Program-made: the position numbers and the translations under genes
In this document: piece by piece, positions 13,317 through 26,660 of the stretch
Layout of the letters: each line of letters opens with the position of its first letter
Position numbering within the stretch: position 1 is the stretch's first letter
Origin: a virus
Length of the DNA stretch: 64,000 nt
Virus record (IMG/VR): IMGVR_UViG_3300046170_000162
Span: 62,001-126,000 of that record
Strand: one strand, 5' to 3'
Notes under the pieces: generated by a model
What the model was told of the DNA's origin: nothing
Databases searched by the model: none
The model's input: the letters and a program-made list of their open reading frames with translations, nothing else

Positions 13317-13706
13317 TCAGGACCCTAGTCCGCGACCCTTGTCATAGTTATCTTTTCCACCATAACGTGCCACAGTATTAGTATAATCTTTAGTGGTTTT
13401 GAACCCACGTTTCTTAGCATCAGAGGCAGTCTCTTTCTTTTTGTCTGCCATTGCTTTGTACTTACCAGTACCAGCATCAGACTTAACACCTTTTGCTTGC
13501 TTCTGCTGACCTGTAGGTTTACCGTGCATCTTACGGATCATCTGCTTGACGTTAGATACAGCAGACTTACCCGACCCACCTTTTTGAGTGGGGGTTCCTG
13601 CAGCAGGAGTATTGAGACCAGTACGACCAGGGACACGTCCAGTGGACTTGCCAGTTTCTTTCTCGTAACGATTCAATTCACTGATGAAATCTTTAAAGCG
13701 TTGCAT
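13317..13706 (-). CDS. basic protein with capsid-targeting-like N-terminus
   Basis: 129 aa, Lys/Gly-rich and probably disordered. It starts [20 protein letters not shown]; the MxxFxxFIxE pattern resembles the T4 capsid-targeting leader MKTYQEFIAE, whose Glu is cut by protease gp21. This suggests an internal head protein, by inference. Its start overlaps the stop of the 148-aa gene by one base. Confidence 0.65.
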   Translation of the reverse strand: MQRFKDFISELNRYEKETGKSTGRVPGRTGLNTPAAGTPTQKGGSGKSAVSNVKQMIRKMHGKPTGQQKQAKGVKSDAGTGKYKAMADKKKETASDAKKRGFKTTKDYTNTVARYGGKDNYDKGRGLGS

Positions 13707-14152
13707 TAGTGTTTATGCGATTCAACAATAACCAAATCTAGGTCAGTGACAGGAACGTTACTATACATTTGCTCTGCCTCATCTACGATGTCGTAGTGGG
13801 TAACAGCGTGAGTATGTCCATACTCGTCAGGTTCTGCCATCTCTGCCAAGGTATGTGCCTCAGGAATTGTATAGCATAGACCATATTCAGCGTGCTCAAC
13901 ATACTTAGCACAGATATGGGTTTTCTTTCCCATTGCTTTACTAACAGTCTTCCTACGATTCAACAGATACTTATCTGATTTATCGTGGTCACCATCGTTG
14001 TCAATATCCTTGTCTTCTTTTCCGACAGGATCGAGTTTCTTTTTAGATGCTTCTTTCAGGTCAGCGAGTTCTGCCTGAAGAAGGGCGCGGATTGACTCTT
14101 TCATCAGTAATTCCTTCTGGGGGTTGATAATAATTTTTGATTTTTTACCCAT
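13706..14152 (-). CDS. hypothetical protein with calcium-loop-like motif
   Basis: 148 aa. Residues 45-60 read [16 protein letters not shown], with Asp at spacings expected of an EF-hand or dockerin-type calcium loop. An internal ATG at residue 17 ([13 protein letters not shown]) could be the true start. The C-terminal half is acidic with several His ([16 protein letters not shown]). It sits in the basic head-protein cluster; role unknown. Confidence 0.6.
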
Positions 14153-14154
14153 TG

Positions 14155-16116
14155 CTACTTTCCGAAGTTAGGGAAGTTCTTCTTGAATAATTCAGATGCT
14201 TCCTTGTGCTTACCTTTGTTGGTAAGATCCTTAGTTTGTTTAAGGACTGCTCTCTTCTTGAGTTGTTCGGGTGTTGGTTCTTCCATAATCTGTTTGTTGT
14301 AAGCAAGTCTGTCTCTCCAAGACGCAGCATCAGGAATACGTGCCTGTGCGTTGTCGTGATCGACAGTTTCTTGTTGCATTTGCATAAGGCGACGTACCTT
14401 ATCTGTTCTTGATTCGTCCATAGTAGACTCTTCTCCTAGTTTTCTTGCGAGTTTATCAGACCCTTTAGAGATTGCTCTTGAGGTTTTACCAATAACTTTT
14501 TTACCAAGATTACCTGCCGCTTTACCAGTTGCTTTAGCAGCGCCTACGCCAGCGCCGACTGCTTTCTTAAGACCTCTGCCGACTGCACCTGCAGCACGAC
14601 TGAGAAGAGATCTCTTTTTGGTACCAGTCTCTGCTGAACCACCTGTTGAGGTAGGTGCAGATCCTGAAGAGGATGGAGAAGATGATCCAGAAGATGATCC
14701 ACCTGAGGATCCAGATGAACTTCCAGATGATGAACTAGAAGCAGAACTTCCTTTGAGACCACGCTCTCTGCCTTTCTGAAATTCAGATTTAGCAGAGGAC
14801 GCTGCACGTTGTGCTACACCAGTAGCATAACCTGCTCCTCTTACTGCTCCTTTTGCTGCTCCCTTAGCACCTGCTTTAGCAGCAGATCCTGCCTTAGCAA
14901 GTCCTTTCTTTACGATAGAACCTGCCTTGGAAGCAGCATTTTTCATACGCTCTACACGCTTGCCTCTAGAGATACGCTTTGCACTATCTTTAGATGCTTT
15001 TACAGCAGAGTCGTAATAATCTTCGGTGAGCAATTCGAATCCGTCCAAGATGTCGAGTGCTTCTGTTAGATTCTGTTCTGTATCGAAATCTAACAGTGCC
15101 TCTACAACAACATCTTGTAGGTCCTGCTCTGTAAGGATGTCAAACTCGTCACCGAGTTCATCTACAACATCCCATACCCATTCCTCGTTAGCGGGTACAC
15201 AGTTAGGAACGTCTTTACCGTTCTTCTTCTTGGTACCTTTAGCAACGTAACCGTCCCAACACGTACTAGCGCCGACGTTTTTACGTGCTTGCTTAAGTCC
15301 TTCCCCAACCACAGTTTTAGGAGTCGCACCTTTTGCTTTGATAGATCTTTGATTCTCACACTGAGGATCAACGGTGGACTGCTTTTCTTTGGGGGTGTCG
15401 ATCTTACTTGATGCAGCACTTGGTTTGTTGTTAAGTGTTGCTGCATTAGCAGACTCCTTGAACTTCACAGGCATTGATACTGTACCTTTGCCTGGAACAT
15501 ACTTAGTAGTTCTTGGATTCTTAGGATCGTCAGACTTAAAATCTTTGTGAATTTTATCATAATCTTTTTTAGACATCTCTAACGCTTCGTTTTTACTCTT
15601 AGCATTAGAATGATGTGATGGATCACCAAACGCAGGGTTGTTTCTGTACTCTGGTTTCTGTTTCTTTTGTGCTGCTTCTAATTTCTTTGCTTTTTTATCA
15701 AGGAAATCTTTCATAGCACCACCTGCCTTACCAGATCCTTTGGTAATACCATATGCACTACCTTCTTCTACTGAAGATGGAGTTCCATCTGCTTCGATTT
15801 CGTGCTCAATCACTTTACCGTCAGCATCCTTCTCGTGATGCTCAACGTTTAGGGTCTTAGGATAATCCTTGTCACCCTTCTTAGCAGGTGCTTCACCACG
15901 CTTGCGTTTAGCGTGAATATTTGACCAAAGACCTGCCTTTCCTTCGATAATAACTTCAGCGATTGCCTTCTCAGTTGGTGTGACAAGACGCTTCTCTAGA
16001 TAGGCATCACGTGCCTCTCCAGTGTAGTTATGCTCTGCGTATTCAACAACGTAAGTTACTGATTGTACGTCTGCTGGTGAATACTTCAGCAGTTTCGAAG
16101 TTAATTTTAAATCCAT
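14155..16116 (-). CDS. large low-complexity virion-type protein
   Basis: 653 aa. N-terminal ordered part (1-90), a basic disordered middle, an acidic helical segment ([20 protein letters not shown], about residues 315-365), Ala/Lys-rich repeats resembling histone H1 ([20 protein letters not shown]), a long Ser/Gly tract around residues 465-500, and a C-terminal helical part. The motif [20 protein letters not shown] recurs in head proteins of cyanophages as I recall them. DNA-binding packaging role inferred. CTAAATA lies 23 bases before its ATG. Confidence 0.65.
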
Positions 16117-16137: not shown

Positions 16138-17289
16138 CTATTTAGTCTTTCTAAAATCACTGAACTTCTTGACTCCCTGCCCAGGTGTCATTGCCTGAAC
16201 TGCTTGTCTGTATGTGTCAGTGCCTATCTTCCAGTCGTTTCCACTACCATCGTCTGCTGACTTGTGTAGTTCTTTGACTTCCATAATAGAAGACAACCAA
16301 ACGTTGAATCGATAGTTTTGTGGAGTCTCAAAGATTACATAATTAGTTCCTTTCTTTACGATTGTTCCTCTTACACCTGTATCTAAGTGCTCCACTATAG
16401 AACCAACTGTAAAGATTTTTTCTTCGAAGAACGCTTCACGAAGATTTTCCTGATCCAACTTAGGAGCGATGTCCCAGAGTTCAGAAACCTCTTCTTCCTG
16501 TTCTTGTTCTTGAATACCCATACCTGCACGAACTTCCATCATTAGTTGTTCAGCAAGTTTCTTTGCATTGCTAGGTACACCCTGAGCAAAACCTTCGAGG
16601 TCTCCTGATGCTGCAAACGCTCGCATCTTAGAAGCACTCATACCTTCTACACCCTCTGCGTCAGGATCTCTTTCTCCTGCAGACATTACATTCAGTGTCT
16701 CGAATTCATATGCCTGACCGTTGTACTTCTCAAGCAATGCTTTGAATTCTGATACTCTATCAGAACCAACAACCATCGTTACTTCTGAGTAACCCTCTTG
16801 ATTGAGGTTAGAAAGTACATTGAAGATGTTAGACATATCGCCATCATTAACGATAGCATCCGAATGATTCGGGAACATCTTTGACATAAAATCGATCTTA
16901 ACATCAGGTTCCAATGGATTCTTTTTAGGATCCACAGTACGTGATGGATAGATTCTATAACTATCAGCACCTTGTTCAGCAACAGTGTTCAATAATTTCT
17001 CGTGACCAACAGTAGGAGGATTGAAACGTCCAAAGGTTAGAGCAATATGTCCAAGACCTTCTCCGCTTTCAATATGCTCATCTTCTGCTGCACCTTGACT
17101 TGCTCCACTCTGTGCTTGTTCTGCTTCTTTACCTGATACAGGTACAAGACGATTCCCTCCTTCAGACTTAGCAACAATGTTACCTTGCCTATCAGCATAG
17201 TAACCGTGCCCTGCGTGTTGGAGTCCTCTCTTAGCAGCAACTTCACCTGCAGCGGTGCGTGCCTCAGTTATAAACTGACTGAACTTCAT
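16138..17289 (-). CDS. HxGH nucleotidyltransferase with capsid-targeting-like leader
   Basis: 383 aa from MKFSQFITEARTAAG; a longer frame starts 21 bases upstream. The leader aligns with the T4 internal-protein capsid-targeting sequence (MKTYQEFIAEARVGAG): MK, FI, EAR and AG are shared, with Glu at the expected gp21 cut. Residues 80-250 form a Rossmann nucleotidyltransferase: LTFGRFNPPTVGHEKLL (T-x-G-H), MVVGSDRVSEF and GMSASKMRAFAASG (the S-x-x-x-x-R motif). The family transfers CMP or AMP to phosphate-containing substrates. The C-terminal region (about 295-345) looks like a small beta-barrel. Packaged enzyme is inferred; substrate unknown. Confidence 0.75.
   Translation of the reverse strand: MKFSQFITEARTAAGEVAAKRGLQHAGHGYYADRQGNIVAKSEGGNRLVPVSGKEAEQAQSGASQGAAEDEHIESGEGLGHIALTFGRFNPPTVGHEKLLNTVAEQGADSYRIYPSRTVDPKKNPLEPDVKIDFMSKMFPNHSDAIVNDGDMSNIFNVLSNLNQEGYSEVTMVVGSDRVSEFKALLEKYNGQAYEFETLNVMSAGERDPDAEGVEGMSASKMRAFAASGDLEGFAQGVPSNAKKLAEQLMMEVRAGMGIQEQEQEEEVSELWDIAPKLDQENLREAFFEEKIFTVGSIVEHLDTGVRGTIVKKGTNYVIFETPQNYRFNVWLSSIMEVKELHKSADDGSGNDWKIGTDTYRQAVQAMTPGQGVKKFSDFRKTK
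16139..16145 (-). promoter_or_regulatory. late promoter-like CTAAATA
   Basis: CTAAATAGTATTACG overlaps the last codons of the nucleotidyltransferase gene, 23 bases before the 653-aa gene. It is the CTAAATA variant of the late motif seen before gp18 and the prohead core gene. Confidence 0.5.
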
Positions 17290-17319
17290 TGATATGTTAG
17301 TGTTTTCCATTTCTATTTA

Positions 17320-18513
17320 TCACCCCCAATTTTTTTCTACTGTGAAGTTCGCTCTAGAGAACTCCAAACGGTCTACAATTTTAAGTGCAGAACCTGATTT
17401 GATTGCTACAAAACCCTCTGGTGCAGTGACTCTGTATCCATTATCAGTCTTAATATATGTACCAATATCTTTGACTTTGTTGAGTTGTTTGATGATAACC
17501 GCCTTGGCAGCAGTGATATTCATATAAGATGCAACAGTCATATACACAGCACGTCCATTTTGATTCAAGAATTTCATACCATTCTCTTTAATAGTGGCAT
17601 ACTTTTTCTTGGTTGTCTCTTGCTTCTTCAGACTGATCTCTTTATCAAGTGCTGCTGCATAGAATGCAGAGAATCCTAGTGCAACTTGCTGTGCATTTGT
17701 GATAGGTTTACCAGTCCTAATAAATGAGTTGAAATATACCTTGAACATAGCAGCAAGCATAAACTTACCCTCACCACTAGTCTGTAGGATGTCTAAGAAT
17801 CTAGATGCTTGCTTGAGAGAACCCTCTGCACGGTTAACTAACAGATCATACTTACTTCTCTCTGTAGGTTTGAATGTAGAAGCACCTGTAGCGTCAGTAA
17901 AGTTTGAAGAGAATACTGCAACGTTAGGTGTGCCCTGCATTCTTCTTGCATCTACACCAAATCCAGGTTTCATATCCCTGAGTGTAGGACCACCAGTGTA
18001 TGTGGTATGAAATACAATACCAAGTTGACTTGTTGCTACCTTCTTACCCATAGGTGTGTTAACAGGTACAGCATATGTGATGGTATTTGGCATAAAAGTA
18101 TGACACTTCTGACCATTCATCGTCTTTGTTGACACATCACCTTTCGTGAACAATAAATCACCCTGTAATACACCATTCATAGGTACCTGAGGGAGGAGAC
18201 GCAAGCACATCTTTAATTTCTTTGCCAGTTCTCCACTGTAATAACTATCAACATCCTCATCATTCATACAAAGTTTTGGCATCTTAGCGAAGACACCCTT
18301 AGTACCAACAAAAAACCTACCAGTTGAGGGATGTTTACCACAAATAACAGCAGGAGCACCGTCCCACTTAGTAGTAACACCGACACCTGATGCAGGTTCA
18401 GTCAGCATCTTGCCCAGTTCCCTGAGAAATGCAATGGCATTGTGTCCACCTTTGGATCCTTGGTTCAAGATGTCATCCTCGATGTGTTCGAGGTGAGTAT
18501 TCTGCTTTGCCAT
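17320..18513 (-). CDS. KxDG ligase/capping-like nucleotidyltransferase candidate
   Basis: 397 aa. Residues about 43-70 contain TTKWDGAPAVICGKHPSTGR followed by FFVGTKG. KWDG fits motif I (K-x-D-G, lysine adenylylation) of DNA/RNA ligases and capping enzymes, and FFVGTKG could be motif III. VLQGDLLF (about 112-119) resembles motif IV and the C-terminal PEGFVAIKSGSALKIV resembles motif V (EGxVxK...K). No OB-fold is obvious. It lies between a nuclease-like gene and the HxGH nucleotidyltransferase, spaced by 7 and 30 bases. I know relatives only as proteins of unknown function. Confidence 0.6.
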   Translation of the reverse strand: MAKQNTHLEHIEDDILNQGSKGGHNAIAFLRELGKMLTEPASGVGVTTKWDGAPAVICGKHPSTGRFFVGTKGVFAKMPKLCMNDEDVDSYYSGELAKKLKMCLRLLPQVPMNGVLQGDLLFTKGDVSTKTMNGQKCHTFMPNTITYAVPVNTPMGKKVATSQLGIVFHTTYTGGPTLRDMKPGFGVDARRMQGTPNVAVFSSNFTDATGASTFKPTERSKYDLLVNRAEGSLKQASRFLDILQTSGEGKFMLAAMFKVYFNSFIRTGKPITNAQQVALGFSAFYAAALDKEISLKKQETTKKKYATIKENGMKFLNQNGRAVYMTVASYMNITAAKAVIIKQLNKVKDIGTYIKTDNGYRVTAPEGFVAIKSGSALKIVDRLEFSRANFTVEKNWG

Positions 18514-19370: not shown

Positions 19371-19378
19371 TATTTATG
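19371..19378 (-). promoter_or_regulatory. late promoter-like CATAAATA
   Basis: NATAAATA-type site 20 bases upstream of the 276-aa gene. It overlaps the end of the 176-aa gene upstream. It would make the three-gene enzyme cassette late-expressed. Confidence 0.45.
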
Positions 19379-19904
19379 AAACCCAATTAGGTTTACGTTC
19401 TGGCAAACGTAGATAGTTATCTTTGACCCAAGGTTTTGCAGCGATATACCTTCTATATGCAGTGAAGGTATCTATTGATTGATCTTGTTTGAACTCGTCG
19501 AACATTGCTCTGACGAATGGAGTAGGATGTTTCCCACTACGACCCGTAGGATCACCTGTAGGAAAGATTTTACTAGCGTGTTCAATGGTGGATTGACAAG
19601 AGTGGATTTTGCCATAGCGTAATGTGTATTCATTGCACAGTGCGAGACCGTGTGTGATTAACCATCGCCAGTTGAGTACAAAACTGTTTGCCCATACTGT
19701 ACAGGGATGATTACGAAAGGCACCCTTCTCTGTTTTGTAAGGTGTACCGTCAAGTTTTGGTAGGTCACCGAAACCGTGACCCCACTTTTCTGATCCGACA
19801 ATAGAAAGCATCTGACAGGTTTCTAGTGGCATCTTGACAATATGTTTGTCAGGAAGCACTCTGGCAGATGCTATTGGATCAGGGTCTGTTACGAAGATAT
19901 TCAT
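19374..19904 (-). CDS. conserved phage protein, MNIFVxDxDP family
   Basis: 176 aa starting MNIFVTDPDPIASARVLPDK. The run DKHIVKMPLETCQMLS, with its His, Lys and Glu, is a conserved feature of a phage family I have seen but cannot link to a function. Other likely key residues are NHPCTVWANS and FVRAMFDEF. The longer frame upstream is rejected because it translates the structured leader RNA. The leader (19936-20050) suggests translational or riboswitch-type control. Confidence 0.72.
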   Translation of the reverse strand: MNIFVTDPDPIASARVLPDKHIVKMPLETCQMLSIVGSEKWGHGFGDLPKLDGTPYKTEKGAFRNHPCTVWANSFVLNWRWLITHGLALCNEYTLRYGKIHSCQSTIEHASKIFPTGDPTGRSGKHPTPFVRAMFDEFKQDQSIDTFTAYRRYIAAKPWVKDNYLRLPERKPNWVS

Positions 19905-19935
19905 AGACCTGATTATGTGTGGTGTGTGGAGGGAG

Positions 19936-20050
19936 GTTGGATTACTGTGTACCAACAAAAGATGGGCATTACTACAGAGTAAATACATCTTTGCCTGAGA
20001 CCCGACTGGTAAGTCGATTCTGCTTTCGCAGCAGCACCACCTGTGTCTCA
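19936..20050 (-). ncRNA. candidate structured leader RNA (possible riboswitch)
   Basis: Three structural units in the 5' leader of the 176-aa gene. Unit A (20050-19996): a TGAGAC/GTCTCA outer stem closing two hairpins, CTGC-GAAA-GCAG and CGACT-TACC-AGTCG, with a 13-nt single strand. Unit B (19992-19958): AAAGATG/CATCTTT around TTACT-CTGT-AGTAA. Unit C (19956-19936): GTTGG/CCAAC with an 11-nt loop. The CTGT loop of B can pair with ACAG in the loop of C, a possible kissing contact. A sigma70-type promoter precedes it. No known Rfam class was recognised; the hairpins are seen directly, the role is inferred. Confidence 0.6.
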
Positions 20051-20126
20051 TCACCTTAACCAGCAGTATGCCAGTAAGTTTGTTCAGTCACTCCCAGTAA
20101 AAGAAGCGTCCCTCTCTTACAAATAT

Positions 20127-20470: not shown

Positions 20471-20688
20471 TTAGTTTCTTCTATTGCCTCCTTAATAATA
20501 TTCTTAAGTTGTCTTCCTTTTTTCTTACTGAGTCCAACTGATGAATCAATCTTTACTTTGACCCAGTAGAGACCGATAAGAACAATTAGGAATGGAATAG
20601 ATTCTTCCCAAGAGATTGCGTTCCAGGCATTTGCTGCTTGACCAAGCATTGCAACTGTGTCTGGTGCTGCAAGCATTTCTGCTCCCAT
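20467..20688 (-). CDS. small membrane protein
   Basis: 73 aa: an Ala-rich N-terminus, one transmembrane helix (ESIPFLIVLIGLYWVKVKI) and a basic cytoplasmic tail (SKKKGRQLKNIIKEA). It starts on the TAATG shared with the mazG stop. Unknown function. Confidence 0.65.
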   Translation of the reverse strand: MGAEMLAAPDTVAMLGQAANAWNAISWEESIPFLIVLIGLYWVKVKIDSSVGLSKKKGRQLKNIIKEAIEETK

Positions 20689-21254
20689 TACCTGTCCCCC
20701 TTCTTACGGTTTTCAGAACGAACAACAGTAAACTCACCCTCAGGATAACGTGTTGCAAGTTTAACTGAGTTACGGAAGGTAACCTCATCAAGAGTTACAC
20801 CGAGTGCCATACAAGCATTCGCGACATACCACATAATATCACCGAGTTCGAGGATAAGATGTTCTTTGTTGTCATCATTCCAGGGTTTACCTTGGAACTT
20901 AAGTTTCTTAACGATCTCCATAAATTCACCACCCTCAGCAACAAGACCAGAGGCAGCAGTATCAAGACGCTCAATGTCACAACCCTCACCTTTGAGAGTT
21001 TCATAACGTTCCATCAGTGCATCAAAATCTTTTGACTCTTTACTGGTGGTCAAGTTTACAAACTTAAAATACTCTTCGTAATCAACTTCAAAGGGTTCGT
21101 TTGTTTCATTTTGATTCTTACGTTTAGCAGCAACCTTTTTACCTGCCACTCCTTGAGGTTCTTGGAATCCTTTAGGGATACGCTCAGCAGGATTGGAGAA
21201 ATCCTTCTCCGTTACCTGTGGTTCTTCACGAAATTCTGCTGTGTTTTCAGTCAT
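20688..21254 (-). CDS. mazG: MazG-like nucleotide pyrophosphohydrolase
   Basis: 188 aa. A disordered N-terminal ~85 residues is followed by the MazG helical core: AASGLVAEGGEFMEIVKKLK (Glu residues of the ExxE motif) and HLILELGDIMWYVANACMAL (ExxD). Four acidic residues coordinate Mg. Cyanophage MazG proteins are reported to hydrolyse (d)GTP and (d)CTP, or were proposed to act on ppGpp; the first fits recycling nucleotides alongside NrdAB. Its start overlaps the gp41 stop by 4 bases. Confidence 0.88.
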   Translation of the reverse strand: MTENTAEFREEPQVTEKDFSNPAERIPKGFQEPQGVAGKKVAAKRKNQNETNEPFEVDYEEYFKFVNLTTSKESKDFDALMERYETLKGEGCDIERLDTAASGLVAEGGEFMEIVKKLKFQGKPWNDDNKEHLILELGDIMWYVANACMALGVTLDEVTFRNSVKLATRYPEGEFTVVRSENRKKGDR

Positions 21255-22627
21255 ACTTTGAAATCATTAAAGTTTTGTTTAGAGAAGGATAGGATGTCAG
21301 ATGCATCAACCGTTTCCTCTTGTCCAGAGTCAACGATCTTCTTTTGTTCTTCACAATCATACAGACGCATCTTCGCCCTGTCAACTCCTACAACGAATCT
21401 CTTGTTCACTGTAGGATCATTATATCTATTCTTAAGTTGTTTCACCATAATCTGATTCAACTCTTCCATCTCTTCAGTAGAGATCAGAGCAATCATAAAG
21501 TCTGCAGTAGCAGGGAGTCCAAATGACTCCGAAGTATCTGTCAGGTCAACATCAGAATTGCCATACCCACTACGAGTAGTTTGAGTAGCGGATACGATAG
21601 GGACATTATGTTCACCTGCAAGTCCACGTAGTTCTTCAGCAATAGATTTAACAAATGTGTACGAGTTAACTATAGCACCTTTGTATCTTGATGAGTTGCA
21701 AATGTTAAGGTAATCAACATAAATGATGTCTGGTACAAACGATTTCTTGATAGCAAGTTCTTGTAACAGTGCCTTGAAGTGTCCTACGTGTGCAGATGCA
21801 GTAGGGTATTCTTTGATAATAAGACGACCATTTGTTTTGTTGTTGACCTTTTCAATTTTAGAATCGAACATTGGTTTAGGCAATGTCTCCAATGATTGAA
21901 TTGGAATGTTCATCAAGTTAGCATCAATACGTTCAGCAATCTTCTCCTCTGCCATTTCCAACGTGATGTATAACACGTTTAGTCCTGCAGAAAGATTAGC
22001 AGCAGCGCAGTGACACATAAACAAAGACTTACCAACACCTGTACCTGCAAGTGCAATGTTCAATGTCTTCTTAGATAGACCACCTTTAGTAATCTTATTG
22101 AGTAACTCAATATCAAAAGGAACCTTTTCTTCTACTCTATGATAGAACTGATAACGTTGATCAGCATCATCGATGTAGTCGTGCCCAACAGAATTATCAA
22201 AAGAAACTGATAGTGCATTAGATAAGATGCTTGGGATAGCATCACGTCCCATTGTTTCAGAGTTGCCATCAGCAATCTGAATAGACTCAAGGAGTGCGTT
22301 GTAGATAGCACGATCACGACACCACTTCTCTGAAGTGTTTACTAACCAATCAATCTCGTGTGGTTCTTCAACCATATTTACAAGAGATGTCTTTAGTTCA
22401 GAGAACGTAGTCTCGTTTAGATCTTCTCTTGATTCAATTTCAATACTCAATGCTTCCTTTGAAGGGAGAGCATCGTATTCCATAAAATATTTTGCAAGTT
22501 CATCGAAGATAATTTTGTTGTTGTAATCTTCGAAGTATTCTTGCTTGATGTGTGGAAGTGTCTTACGTGTAAAATCTTGATTATGAATCAAGTTTGTTAC
22601 TACGAGTCCTTCTACAGAATTAGACAT
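21251..22627 (-). CDS. gp41: replicative DNA helicase, T4 gp41-like
   Basis: 458 aa. RecA-fold hexameric helicase: Walker A GTGVGKSLFMCHC (residues about 195-207), Walker B/H2 DIIYVDYLNI, VPIVSATQTTRSG (motif H3 with Gln) and a C-terminal arginine-finger region. The N-terminal helical domain (1-150) contacts primase. It unwinds the fork on the lagging strand. It lies between UvsX/oxygenase and MazG in one coupled operon. Confidence 0.95.
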   Translation of the reverse strand: MSNSVEGLVVTNLIHNQDFTRKTLPHIKQEYFEDYNNKIIFDELAKYFMEYDALPSKEALSIEIESREDLNETTFSELKTSLVNMVEEPHEIDWLVNTSEKWCRDRAIYNALLESIQIADGNSETMGRDAIPSILSNALSVSFDNSVGHDYIDDADQRYQFYHRVEEKVPFDIELLNKITKGGLSKKTLNIALAGTGVGKSLFMCHCAAANLSAGLNVLYITLEMAEEKIAERIDANLMNIPIQSLETLPKPMFDSKIEKVNNKTNGRLIIKEYPTASAHVGHFKALLQELAIKKSFVPDIIYVDYLNICNSSRYKGAIVNSYTFVKSIAEELRGLAGEHNVPIVSATQTTRSGYGNSDVDLTDTSESFGLPATADFMIALISTEEMEELNQIMVKQLKNRYNDPTVNKRFVVGVDRAKMRLYDCEEQKKIVDSGQEETVDASDILSFSKQNFNDFKV

Positions 22628-23177
22628 AGTGGATGTACGTTCCCGCGATGTATTTTGCGTTAGAGATTGCAGGTAGTCCTGCGTGAGGATATGTCCACGT
22701 GGGTGGGAACACTAACATTCTACCACGTTTAGGAGTAACTTTCATATGTTTGAATTCAGTCTCTCCACCCTCTTGAACATCATTGAGGTACCAGAATATC
22801 ACAAGCATTCTTTTAGCAGACTCGTGGTCACCCACATCGACGTGCCATTTGAATTGATCTTCTGAATCTGGATTGTATCTCTTGATCCTAAATTGTTCAA
22901 GTGATGTCTTCATAGGAAAGTATTTCCTACAGTCACACTCATCCATATATCGTTGGATGAAATCGTGAGCAGACTGAATCAATGTTGATTGGATTATGTC
23001 CCAATCTTTATGTGCTCCCTTTTCAACGTGCTCGGTGATATTAAATTGTGCGAAGGTAGGACGACCATCTCTATCCCAAACTTCGTGCTCTTCTTTTTCA
23101 AAGAGACGAATTGCATTCTCACATACTTCTTTAGAGATGGTATCATCATAAACCTTGATGAAAGATTCAAGATCCAT
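22620..23177 (-). CDS. 2OG-Fe(II) oxygenase, prolyl-4-hydroxylase type
   Basis: 185 aa from [12 protein letters not shown]; a TTG two codons earlier is less likely. Iron ligands HVD in [16 protein letters not shown], a jelly-roll core [15 protein letters not shown], and YPHAGLP with the distal His, then Lys in NAKYIAGTY for 2-oxoglutarate. P4H-type enzymes hydroxylate peptidyl proline; the phage substrate is unknown. It overlaps the uvsX 3' end by 11 bases and gp41 by 8. Confidence 0.88.
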
Positions 23178-24186
23178 ATGCAAATTCCTTCTTCGCTGCT
23201 TCTTCCAACTTATCCATTATTTCACTGGTGAAGTATTTCTCAGGATCCTTGAGAATAACAGAAGGGAAGACGCTAGACTCCCCGACAACAACACGATTAC
23301 CCTTACGTTCAAATACCCCATACTTCTCACCCAATTCCAATAGTCCGTAATACTTGTCAAGTCCCCTTGAGTCATAGAATAACCTCGTTTCTACTTTTAC
23401 ATTTTCTTTAGTGAAGCGTGACTTAGCAGTCAAACATTTGATAATGTTACCAACGATCTCTTTGTTAGAGTCGCGTTCTTTAGATTTACTCAGGAAAATA
23501 ATTGTACTGGCAGCATACTTAAGACCAGATCCTCCACCCATTTCTTTAGTTGGGACGTATGCACCTACCACGTCATATGTATGGTTAGTAACGATGAGTG
23601 GTACATTGCAACGACCTAGTTCAAGAGTTAGAACACGGAAGATTGCTTTCACAACCTGTGCTCTAGTCATATCCCTAGTCTCTTTACCTTCCTCACTATC
23701 AGATACTTCCTTAGAAGTGGAAAGCATACCAAGTGAGTCAAGACAGAACATCATAGGTTTCCTGTCCTCCTCCTTCATCTTGGAGTAGTTCTTCAGTGTC
23801 TTAAGTGCCTGTGTTCTAAACTCTTGTACAGTAGTAACAGGAACAACAGCGACACGATTAGGATCAATACCACGACTGGTCAGCATATTCTGGGAGACAG
23901 CAGACTCAGATTCGAAATATAATACAATAGCGTCAGGATTAGAATCCAGGAAACTACGAACGACACTAAGAGTAAAAAAAGTTTTTCCAGTGCTTGATTC
24001 TCCTGCAATAGCGGTGATCTTGTTTGAAGGCAAACCTCCATAAATCGAACCACTAACAAGGGCATTGAATATATGAGACCCAGTGTCAACGAAAGAAGTA
24101 ACGTCGCCTGCAGCAACCCCGTCACTAACGACTGAAGCATAGTCATTGCCAATGTCGCTGATAATGTCTTTTAAAAATGATGTCAT
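23167..24186 (-). CDS. uvsX: recombinase UvsX (RecA-like)
   Basis: 339 aa. Walker [15 protein letters not shown] (residues 64-77), Walker [12 protein letters not shown], and the L2-type [11 protein letters not shown] after VPTKEM. It forms filaments on ssDNA for recombination-dependent replication and repair, working with UvsY, UvsW and gp46/47 at 42-49 kb. It overlaps gp43 by 4 bases. Confidence 0.95.
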
Positions 24187-26660
24187 AGGAAAAATTCGTC
24201 TAGGTTAGCAATCTTCTCTGCCTTCCAATTAATAGTATCCATAATAACCTGTAATGGATCAAGGAAACTCTTCTGGAATTGTAGGTCATAATCTATGTAC
24301 TTGTCAAGACCAAATTCTTTCGGCAGAGTCTGAAAGAAACTTACAACGTTCTCTTGGATTTTGTTTGGGGTCTTTAAATAGAGGAACTTTACCTTCTCCC
24401 CCTCTTGAATTAGAGGATACTTGTGAGTCAATTTGTTCTTCTTGTTATAGAAATTGTATAGGAGTGCTCCTCTCACGTGGATAGGAGTACCCTTTGAATA
24501 TATTGTAGCAGGGTTTGAGAACTTTGACAGACCATTACACCCACGTGGGAATGCAACATCCTCTGCGTTTAGTTTCTCAAACTTCTCCCTGAATTTTGCT
24601 ATGAAATCTTGGGTATCCTGTTCGGTACCATTCATAATAACTTTCATAGCATCCTTAATTGCTGTCCTACAGGCAGCAGGTGTGGATGATTTGACTGCCT
24701 CAATGCCCATCATCTTGATCTTAGGTTCAGTAAACCTGACTCCTTCGATGTCATAAGCGTTGAGAATATATCTTTTCTTGGCAGTCCATATACCTTTGTT
24801 GGCAATGGTCTCCCTCTTCATCTTCATTTTTTGGTCATACGCCGAAACGTACGTCGCGAGTTCCGAGTAACTTTGATCAATGTAGGGTTCAATCTTTTCT
24901 TGACAGATCTTGTCAAGTATCCCCACAACTGCGTCTTTATCACCACACTTACTACCAAAAAATTTATCAACAAGAGGTCCAAGGTTAAGATAGATTGAGT
25001 CAGTGTCAGATGCAATGACATAATCCTTCTTTTCTGTGTTGAGTAAGTTATTTAGGTAATCATTCATACGATTCTCAATCCAACGGATTGAAACCTGACC
25101 AGAAAGAGTGATTGCTTCAGCATTCGCTAGGTTAAAATACCTAAAGTATTGGTTACCAATAGCACCATATGCAGAGTTCAATTGAATCTTTCTCGCCATC
25201 TGTATGTTATTGAAGGCAGAAATATCATCCTGTAACTTTTTGTTACCTGTCTTCTCAAATTCTTTCTTCGCTTGAATCATCTTCTTCTTAAAGATCACAC
25301 GTTCATCGTAGATCTTCTGCATCATCTTGGGTAGAAATCCTTGGATGTCTTTCCTGTACTGTGCTCGGTTGGCACACACACAGTAATCTCCACTGATTTG
25401 TACTTCTCTGTTGAGCAGTCCATCAACACTGGCGGTGGGGTGTCTTGTATCGATGAGGGTCTCAGGCGAAATATTATACTGCATAATGAGATGAGGATAC
25501 AGAGAGTTAAGGTCAAACGAAACAACCCAATCGTAGAGTCCTGGTTTGGGTTCTTTGACGTATGCTCCTGCGTACTTATCGTTCTTGGTGCTCTCTTGTC
25601 TTGGGGGGACACAGATTTTACGCTCCTTCAGATAGTTGTAGATGAGTGTATCCCACATACGAACCTGAGAATAAACATCCTCGAAGTTTACCTTGGCATC
25701 GTATGCCATCACGACAGCAAGTTCCAGTAGTTTCATCTTGTGTTCAAGACGATCTACTAGTTCAACGTCAATGATGTTGTATTCAACGAACTTCTGCCAG
25801 TCATCAGTATAGAATGCTTTGAAGTTCTCAAACTCACTGTGATCTAACTTACGTTGATCTAGTTCGACAAACGCAATATGATCCAGACGATATGATTCCT
25901 GATTGGTATATGTAAACTTTCGGTATAGATCAAGGTAATCCAGAATGCTTACTCCAAGAATGTTGTAGGACAAATTCCTACGACCCTTGATGTAAACCTC
26001 ACGCATATTAACTTTGTTCCAAGGTGATAATGATTTTTGCCACTTCTCACCTAGCACACGTTCAATGCGACGACAGATATAAGGGATGTCGTACAGATTA
26101 CAATTCCAACCAGTAACCACATCAGGAGTGTTCTCTACCCACCAAGAATGGAAATCAGATAACATCTCCTGTTCAGTCCAGAAGCAACGATACTCAGTAT
26201 CAATCTTTGCTTCACGGGTTCCCCAAGTGATGAACTTACCACTAGAAAGATCTTTAATAGTAATAAGAAGCATCTCCTCTTGACACGCTTCGGTATCAGG
26301 GAAACCATTCTCGCAAGCAACCTCGATGTCAATCGTATAGATCTTCATCTGCTCAAGGTTTGCCCTCATATCCTGAGGGTATTTTTCTGAGATCCATTGA
26401 TATACAAATCTTTCGTAACCGTGCACCTCAAAACCTTCAACACCTTTATACTTCTCGATGAACTCACGAGCACGTTTAGCACCGTCTTGTTTGACTGGTG
26501 CCATCTTCTCGCCATCAAGAGTCTTCCATTTACCTTTCGGTGATGGAACATACAGTGTTGGTTTGATGATTTCCTTATACGAAATAGGGACACCATCCTC
26601 ATACCCTCGGCAGAGAATAGCGTCACCTAGTAGTGTTACGTTTGTATAGACTGAACTCAA
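24183..26660 (-). CDS. gp43: DNA polymerase, family B (T4 gp43-like)
   Basis: 825 aa. Exonuclease domain: [10 protein letters not shown] (Exo I D-x-E), [15 protein letters not shown] (Exo II), [14 protein letters not shown] (Exo III). Polymerase domain: [20 protein letters not shown] (motif A; His where T4 has Ser), [14 protein letters not shown] (motif B), [14 protein letters not shown] (motif C). The C-terminal tail ends LDEFFL, which fits a sliding-clamp binding peptide. Slightly shorter than T4 gp43 (898 aa), normal for cyanophages. Confidence 0.97.

What the first reader, a model, noticed from the sequence alone, without database searches (positions are those of the whole stretch)
17320..18513. 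Ligase/capping-like protein with KxDG motif and unknown family
KWDG (motif I), FFVGTKG (III), QGDLLF (IV) and EGFVAIKS...K (V) appear in the right order and spacing for a covalent lysyl-AMP nucleotidyltransferase. To my knowledge this family is annotated only as unknown.
Basis: partly seen in the sequence, partly recalled or inferred. Interest (0 to 1): 0.75.

Follow-up and report, generated by a model that had tools for sequence, protein, structure and literature searches.

The report
Hidden ligase-like enzyme of marine phages
A gene of unknown function (DUF6267) that nearly every T4-like cyanobacterial phage carries looks like a nucleic-acid-joining (ligase-type) enzyme, and could be the ligase these phages were thought to lack; the activity itself has not been tested.

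Summary
The ORF is real: minus strand, 18513 to 17320, 397 aa, a full-length member of PF19782 (DUF6267, function unknown). No sequence or profile search connects it to known ligases. The full-length AlphaFold2 model also matches nothing in the PDB, probably because of a helical insert. The short natural form (296 aa, pLDDT 90) puts ligase-superfamily chains in its first 26 PDB places, though no single hit is significant (best E = 0.008). The gene is single-copy and near-universal in T4-like cyanophages, sits with gp43, UvsX and gp41, and all 10 marine records tested lack recognisable gp30, LigA, Rnl1, Rnl2 and PseT. Conclusion: a new branch of the ligase superfamily, most likely a polynucleotide ligase for replication or repair. 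DNA versus RNA substrate and the cofactor are open.

The parts
17320..18513 (-). DUF6267 protein, 397 aa: predicted lysyl-NMP nucleotidyltransferase (ligase-like)
18358..18369 (-). Motif I, K49-W-D-G52 (predicted nucleotide-accepting lysine K49)
   Evidence: K49, D51, G52 identical in 105/105 and 40/40 relatives
18298..18300 (-). K72 of FVGTK, position of the motif Ia basic residue
   Evidence: invariant; position by analogy with T4 Rnl1 K117/K119 and RLIG1 Arg89
18157..18165 (-). Motif III, Q117-G-D119 (Asp in place of the usual Glu)
   Evidence: D119 invariant; G118 replaced by C, S or A in some members
18007..18009 (-). H169 in strand 164-173, candidate motif IIIa residue
   Evidence: invariant; RLIG1 uses His in motif IIIa
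17482..17868 (-). Helical insert, residues 216-344, between the IIIa and IV strands; shorter in the 296-aa form
   Evidence: AF2 secondary structure; alignment
17407..17418 (-). Motif IV, E366-G-F-V369
   Evidence: invariant E, G, V; best local profile match to T4 Rnl1 is this motif in register (not significant)
17368..17382 (-). Motif V, K378-I-V-D-R382
   Evidence: K378 invariant; R382 104/105 and 40/40
16138..17310 (-). Downstream NMNAT/cytidylyltransferase-like protein, fused to DUF6267 in some cyanophages
   Evidence: co-directional downstream in 107/114 long-form loci with enough flank
21251..22627 (-). gp41/DnaB-like replicative helicase, conserved upstream neighbour
   Evidence: 85/96 long-form loci with enough flank
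23167..26660 (-). UvsX recombinase and gp43 DNA polymerase: same replication module
20688..21254 (-). MazG pyrophosphohydrolase
19374..20054 (-). Pyrimidine-dimer glycosylase-like (Pyr_excise) protein
   Evidence: E = 1.6e-13

Best explanation
DUF6267 is an unrecognised branch of the covalent lysyl-nucleotidyltransferase (polynucleotide ligase / capping) superfamily. K49 attacks a nucleotide cofactor (probably ATP) to give a lysyl-AMP; D51, D119, E366 and K378 bind metal and phosphates, and K72 and H169 hold the nucleotide. The AMP is then passed to a 5'-phosphate end and the end is sealed. Because the gene is a near-universal, single-copy part of the replication module of T4-like marine phages that lack every recognisable ligase, the likeliest job is sealing nicks or ends during phage DNA replication or repair. 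Shown: gene, family, residue conservation, context, absence of other ligase families in the records tested. Inferred: fold assignment (computed model plus unanimous but individually marginal structure matches), cofactor, chemistry, nucleic-acid substrate.
For: Motif set in the right order with invariant catalytic residues. Confident AF2 models (pLDDT 89.6 and 90.3). Foldseek of the short form against the PDB: ranks 1-26 are all ligase-superfamily chains (Thermococcus DNA ligase, LigIV, LIG1, yeast tRNA ligase, REL1, Naegleria RNA ligase and others), with T4 Rnl2 at ranks 30 and 43. The predicted order of strands (K49 ends strand 45-49, D119 in strand 115-123, E366/K378 beside strands 367-372 and 375-379) fits the superfamily. 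The best local profile match to T4 Rnl1 puts motifs IV-V in register (not significant on its own). Context: gp43, UvsX, gp41, MazG, Pyr_excise upstream; gp61 and nrdAB downstream. 10 of 10 marine records tested lack gp30/PF01068, LigA/PF01653, Rnl1/PF09511, Rnl2/PF09414 and PseT, while T4 scores for gp30, Rnl1, Rnl2 and PseT; 9 further DUF6267 records lack PF01068. Near-universality: 368 Synechococcus + 61 Cyanophage records against 375 + 61 with UvsX. The literature states that cyanomyoviruses have no g30 homologue and leaves an unidentified distant homologue possible (PMC2984593).
Against: No sequence-based link to any ligase family: Pfam scan of 105 members, PDB profile search, hhalign against Rnl1 and Rnl2, though Rnl1 and Rnl2 do not find each other either in the same test. 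The full-length model gives no PDB match, and the short-form matches have E of 8e-3 or worse and TM 0.2-0.33. Motif III has Asp where the superfamily usually has Glu, and motif V has one Lys rather than K-x-K. No OB domain follows motif V, unlike DNA ligases. Vibrio phage EniLVp02 has DUF6267 together with gp30, Rnl1, an Rnl2-family protein and PseT, so it is not a strict replacement. Host cells have LigA, so phages may not need their own ligase. In the divergent short-form group the gene sits in accessory regions.
Confidence: 0.66

Rival explanations
1. It is an RNA ligase of the Rnl1/RLIG1 style that repairs tRNA or other RNA cut during infection.
For: Like RNA ligases it has no OB domain after motif V; spacing of motif IV to V (12) is like T4 Rnl1 (13) and RLIG1 (13); candidate His in motif IIIa as in RLIG1; motifs IV-V are the best local match to the Rnl1 profile.
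Against: Neighbours are DNA replication genes; no polynucleotide kinase-phosphatase (PseT) in the 10 marine records tested; top structural ranks are mostly DNA ligases.
Confidence: 0.22
2. It is a covalent nucleotidyltransferase with a non-ligase job (protein AMPylation, 5'-end capping, or activation of a small molecule), working with the NMNAT/cytidylyltransferase-like partner encoded next to it.
For: Tight link and fusion with the CTP_transf_like protein; cytidylyltransferases are reported in cyanophage virions (PMC10665884); Asp in motif III and the missing second motif V lysine are unusual.
Against: Fusion can reflect co-regulation only; the short-form group mostly lacks the partner (4 of 49); structural neighbours are ligases, and a capping enzyme appears only as a weak hit of the full-length model.
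Confidence: 0.15
3. The fold resemblance is spurious: KxDG and EGxV are coincidental and the protein has another function.
For: No significant sequence, profile or single structural match; a loose motif pattern arises in 0.27% of shuffles.
Against: The first 26 places of an unbiased PDB search are all one superfamily, and the invariant residues include the expected catalytic set in the expected order.
Confidence: 0.07

Closest known systems
PF19782 DUF6267 / PHROG 455
   Same: The protein is a full-length DUF6267 member (E = 1e-127) and matches the N-terminal half of PHROG 455 (E = 9e-119).
   Different: Nothing: it is this family; the family has no assigned function.
T4 RNA ligase 1 (Rnl1, PF09511) and RLIG1
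   Same: KxDG, a basic residue about 20 after it, motif IV EG[FY]V, motif V Lys 12-13 later; RLIG1 also uses His in motif IIIa.
   Different: No profile match; motif III Asp; no C-terminal specificity domain after motif V; helical insert between IIIa and IV.
T4 RNA ligase 2 / RNA editing ligases (PF09414)
   Same: Fold neighbours in the structure search (2hvr, 1s68, 1xdn); no OB domain.
   Different: No profile match.
ATP-dependent DNA ligases including T4 gp30 (PF01068)
   Same: Best-ranked structures (6wbo, 3rr5, LigIV, LIG1); replication-module location.
   Different: No sequence match; no OB fold or motif VI after motif V.
NAD+-dependent DNA ligase LigA (PF01653)
   Same: KxDG motif I (general knowledge); one weak hit to a DnlJ model with the full-length model.
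   Different: No PF01653 match in the records; LigA's additional domains not seen.

Membership tests
DUF6267 (PF19782) | Full-length match over the curated cut-off (27 bits) | tested here: met
   426.9 bits, profile 1-376 of 376
Covalent lysyl-nucleotidyltransferase superfamily | Motif I K-x-D-G, invariant Lys | tested here: met
   K49, D51, G52 in 145/145 relatives
Covalent lysyl-nucleotidyltransferase superfamily | Motifs III, IV, V in order with acidic residue, EG, Lys | tested here: met
   D119, E366-G367, K378 invariant; Asp rather than Glu in motif III is atypical
Covalent lysyl-nucleotidyltransferase superfamily | Nucleotidyltransferase fold | tested here: inconclusive
   Ranks 1-26 of the PDB search are the superfamily, but best E = 8e-3 and TM 0.2-0.33; full-length model no match
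Covalent lysyl-nucleotidyltransferase superfamily | Enzyme-lysyl-NMP intermediate | not testable with these tools
   Needs biochemistry
T4 gp30-type DNA ligase (PF01068) | Sequence profile match | tested here: not met
   No PF01068 or gp30 match in own record or 9 other marine records; T4 control positive
ATP-dependent DNA ligase | OB domain with motif VI after motif V | tested here: not met
   Only 19 residues follow K378; predicted as one helix
T4 Rnl1 (PF09511) | Sequence profile match | tested here: not met
   No match in own record; hhalign not significant
Rnl2 / RNA_ligase (PF09414) | Sequence profile match | tested here: not met
LigA (PF01653) | Sequence profile match | tested here: not met
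Polynucleotide ligase (by function) | Seals DNA or RNA ends | not testable with these tools
   Needs an in vitro assay

The most novel reading that the evidence does not exclude
DUF6267 is the missing replicative DNA ligase of T4-like marine phages: a family with an insert-bearing nucleotidyltransferase core and no OB domain that replaced gp30, and that in some lineages is fused to an NMNAT-like enzyme.
Probability: 0.35. Interest if true: 0.8.

Novelty: new variant of a known kind. Interest (0 to 1): 0.62.

Why it matters
T4-like cyanophages are among the most abundant ocean viruses, and a review records that they have no gp30 ligase, leaving open whether the host enzyme does the work or a distant homologue was missed (PMC2984593). 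This family is a concrete, single-copy, near-universal candidate that one autoadenylylation assay can test. It would also give a function to a DUF present in hundreds of phage genomes, and possibly a new ligase architecture.

Tried and rejected
Sequence routes to known ligases failed: phmmer and profile search of the PDB, Pfam scan of all 105 members at E up to 10, NCBIfam, hhalign against Rnl1 and Rnl2 profiles made here. The full-length model gave no useful PDB match, which I attribute to the helical insert; the short natural form was therefore modelled instead. A strict 'replaces gp30' claim was rejected because Vibrio phage EniLVp02 carries both. A T4-style kinase-plus-ligase RNA repair pathway was not supported (no PseT in the marine records). 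The S-CREM2 paper lists a ligase, but no PF01068 match was found in that genome.

Full report
What is there. The interval 17320-18513 is one open reading frame on the minus strand: ATG at 18513, TGA at 17322-17320, 397 aa. The plus strand is closed by stops. The protein is a complete DUF6267 (PF19782, 426.9 bits, profile 1-376) and matches PHROG 455, 'unknown function'. The window lies in a 181,945-base virus record with one DUF6267 gene. tblastn finds the family in 468 phage records, nearly all Synechococcus/Prochlorococcus T4-like phages, plus Methylophilales, Pelagibacter and a few Vibrio and other phages. No held paper names DUF6267.

Motifs. In T4 Rnl1 the corresponding stretches are KEDGSL, then FKSKGS, and EGYVAVMKDGSHFKIK, with E-to-K spacing of 13 against 12 here. 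In RLIG1, Asp75 (I), Arg89 (Ia), Glu174 (III), His195 (IIIa), Glu240 (IV) and Lys253 (V) were shown to matter (PMC11494293). The nine key residues are invariant in 105 long and 40 short relatives, and in a 12-member set of extreme diversity only 23 columns of the protein remain invariant, these nine among them. G118 of motif III is not invariant (C, S or A occur), D119 is. Shuffling shows the motif string alone is only moderately unlikely (0.27%), so conservation and fold carry the case.

Fold. AlphaFold2 models made from alignments of the window protein and viral-contig relatives are confident: 397-aa form pLDDT 89.6, pTM 0.86; 296-aa natural short form pLDDT 90.3, pTM 0.86. The long form has a helical block (residues 216-344) between the IIIa strand and motif IV and matches nothing in the PDB. 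The short form gives a clear ranking: places 1 to 26 are all ligase-superfamily chains, namely Thermococcus DNA ligase 6wbo (E = 8.3e-3, probability 0.82), 3rr5, the chain of an NHEJ complex that is presumably LigIV (7lsy_Y), LIG1, yeast tRNA ligase 6n0t, REL1 1xdn, Naegleria ligase 5cou and others, with T4 Rnl2 at 30 and 43; carbonic anhydrases start at 27. Each hit alone is marginal and TM-scores are low (0.2-0.33). The 26 chains are redundant (under a dozen distinct proteins), so they are not independent. Still, a chance run of this kind is very unlikely. The strand order (K49 ends the strand 45-49, D119 lies in 115-123, H169 in 164-173, E366 and K378 beside 367-372 and 375-379) fits.

No sequence bridge. 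Profiles do not connect DUF6267 with Rnl1 (E = 0.07, where the best local alignment is nevertheless motifs IV-V in register), Rnl2, Pfam or PDB sequences. Rnl1 and Rnl2, both accepted members of the superfamily, also fail to find each other with profiles of the same kind, so this negative has little weight.

Context. Reading along the minus strand: gp43 polymerase (24183-26660), UvsX, an endonuclease/2OG-oxygenase-like ORF, gp41 helicase (21251-22627), MazG, Pyr_excise, an unknown 276-aa protein, DUF6267, an NMNAT/cytidylyltransferase-like protein, further ORFs, then gp61 primase, NrdA and NrdB. In long-form loci with enough flank, gp41 lies upstream in 85 of 96 and the cytidylyltransferase downstream in 107 of 114 (loci not thinned for relatedness). 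In metaG-MbCM1 the two are one 728-aa protein (DUF6267 3-302, CTP_transf_like 388-494). A divergent short-form group mostly lacks the partner (4 of 49) and sits in accessory regions, sometimes near a helicase.

Missing ligases. A 2010 review states that homologues of g30 DNA ligase, and mostly of RNase H, are not found in cyanomyoviruses; it considers an unidentified distant homologue possible and use of the host enzymes more probable (PMC2984593). In 10 marine records with DUF6267 (own record, seven other viral contigs, S-RIM2, P-RSM6) no gp30/PF01068, LigA, Rnl1, Rnl2 or PseT was found; T4 scored for all of these but LigA. Nine more records lack PF01068. Some records are fragments. Near-universality: 368 Synechococcus and 61 'Cyanophage' records hold DUF6267, against 375 and 61 with UvsX. 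Against strict replacement: Vibrio phage EniLVp02 carries DUF6267 and also gp30, Rnl1, an Rnl2-family protein and PseT.

Mechanism. The best-supported reading is a lysyl-NMP-forming nucleotidyltransferase acting as a polynucleotide ligase, with the helical insert perhaps taking the place of the missing OB or C-terminal domain for substrate grip (inference). DNA nick sealing in replication or repair is favoured by gene neighbourhood and by the missing ligase; RNA ligation is favoured by the lack of an OB domain and the Rnl1/RLIG1-like spacing. I put about 0.9 on superfamily membership, 0.66 on the stated explanation (polynucleotide ligase, most likely for replication or repair) and 0.35 on a true replicative DNA ligase. 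The rivals overlap with it, so the figures do not sum to one. The NMNAT-like partner could supply NAD+ or another nucleotide; this is speculation.

Noticed in passing
L335:3995-6181 (metaG-MbCM1, NC_019443.1 145353-147539): The DUF6267-cytidylyltransferase fusion is annotated 'NrdB ribonucleotide reductase A subunit', which looks like a misannotation.
   Followed up: yes
window 13706-14152 (-): An acidic EF-hand-like segment ([31 protein letters not shown]) recurs at the C-terminus of the metaG-MbCM1 fusion and links several PHROGs (764, 4359, 38880, 22379); function unknown.
   Followed up: no
window 14155-16116 (-): 653-aa Ser/Gly/Ala/Lys-rich protein with patchy matches to eleven PHROGs, between the NMNAT-like gene and the EF-hand-like ORF.
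   Followed up: no
L184-L263: A roughly 295-325 aa short-form DUF6267 subfamily lies in accessory regions mostly without the NMNAT-like partner, some members with C or S for the motif III glycine.
   Followed up: partly
L183:5956-7038 (Vibrio phage EniLVp02): A divergent DUF6267 near the DnaB-like helicase in a Straboviridae phage that also has gp30, Rnl1, an Rnl2-family protein and PseT.
   Followed up: partly
L338:5977-6864 (S-CREM2 gp87): In S-CREM2 the DUF6267 gene lies just beyond the long tail fiber gene, not beside replication genes.
   Followed up: no
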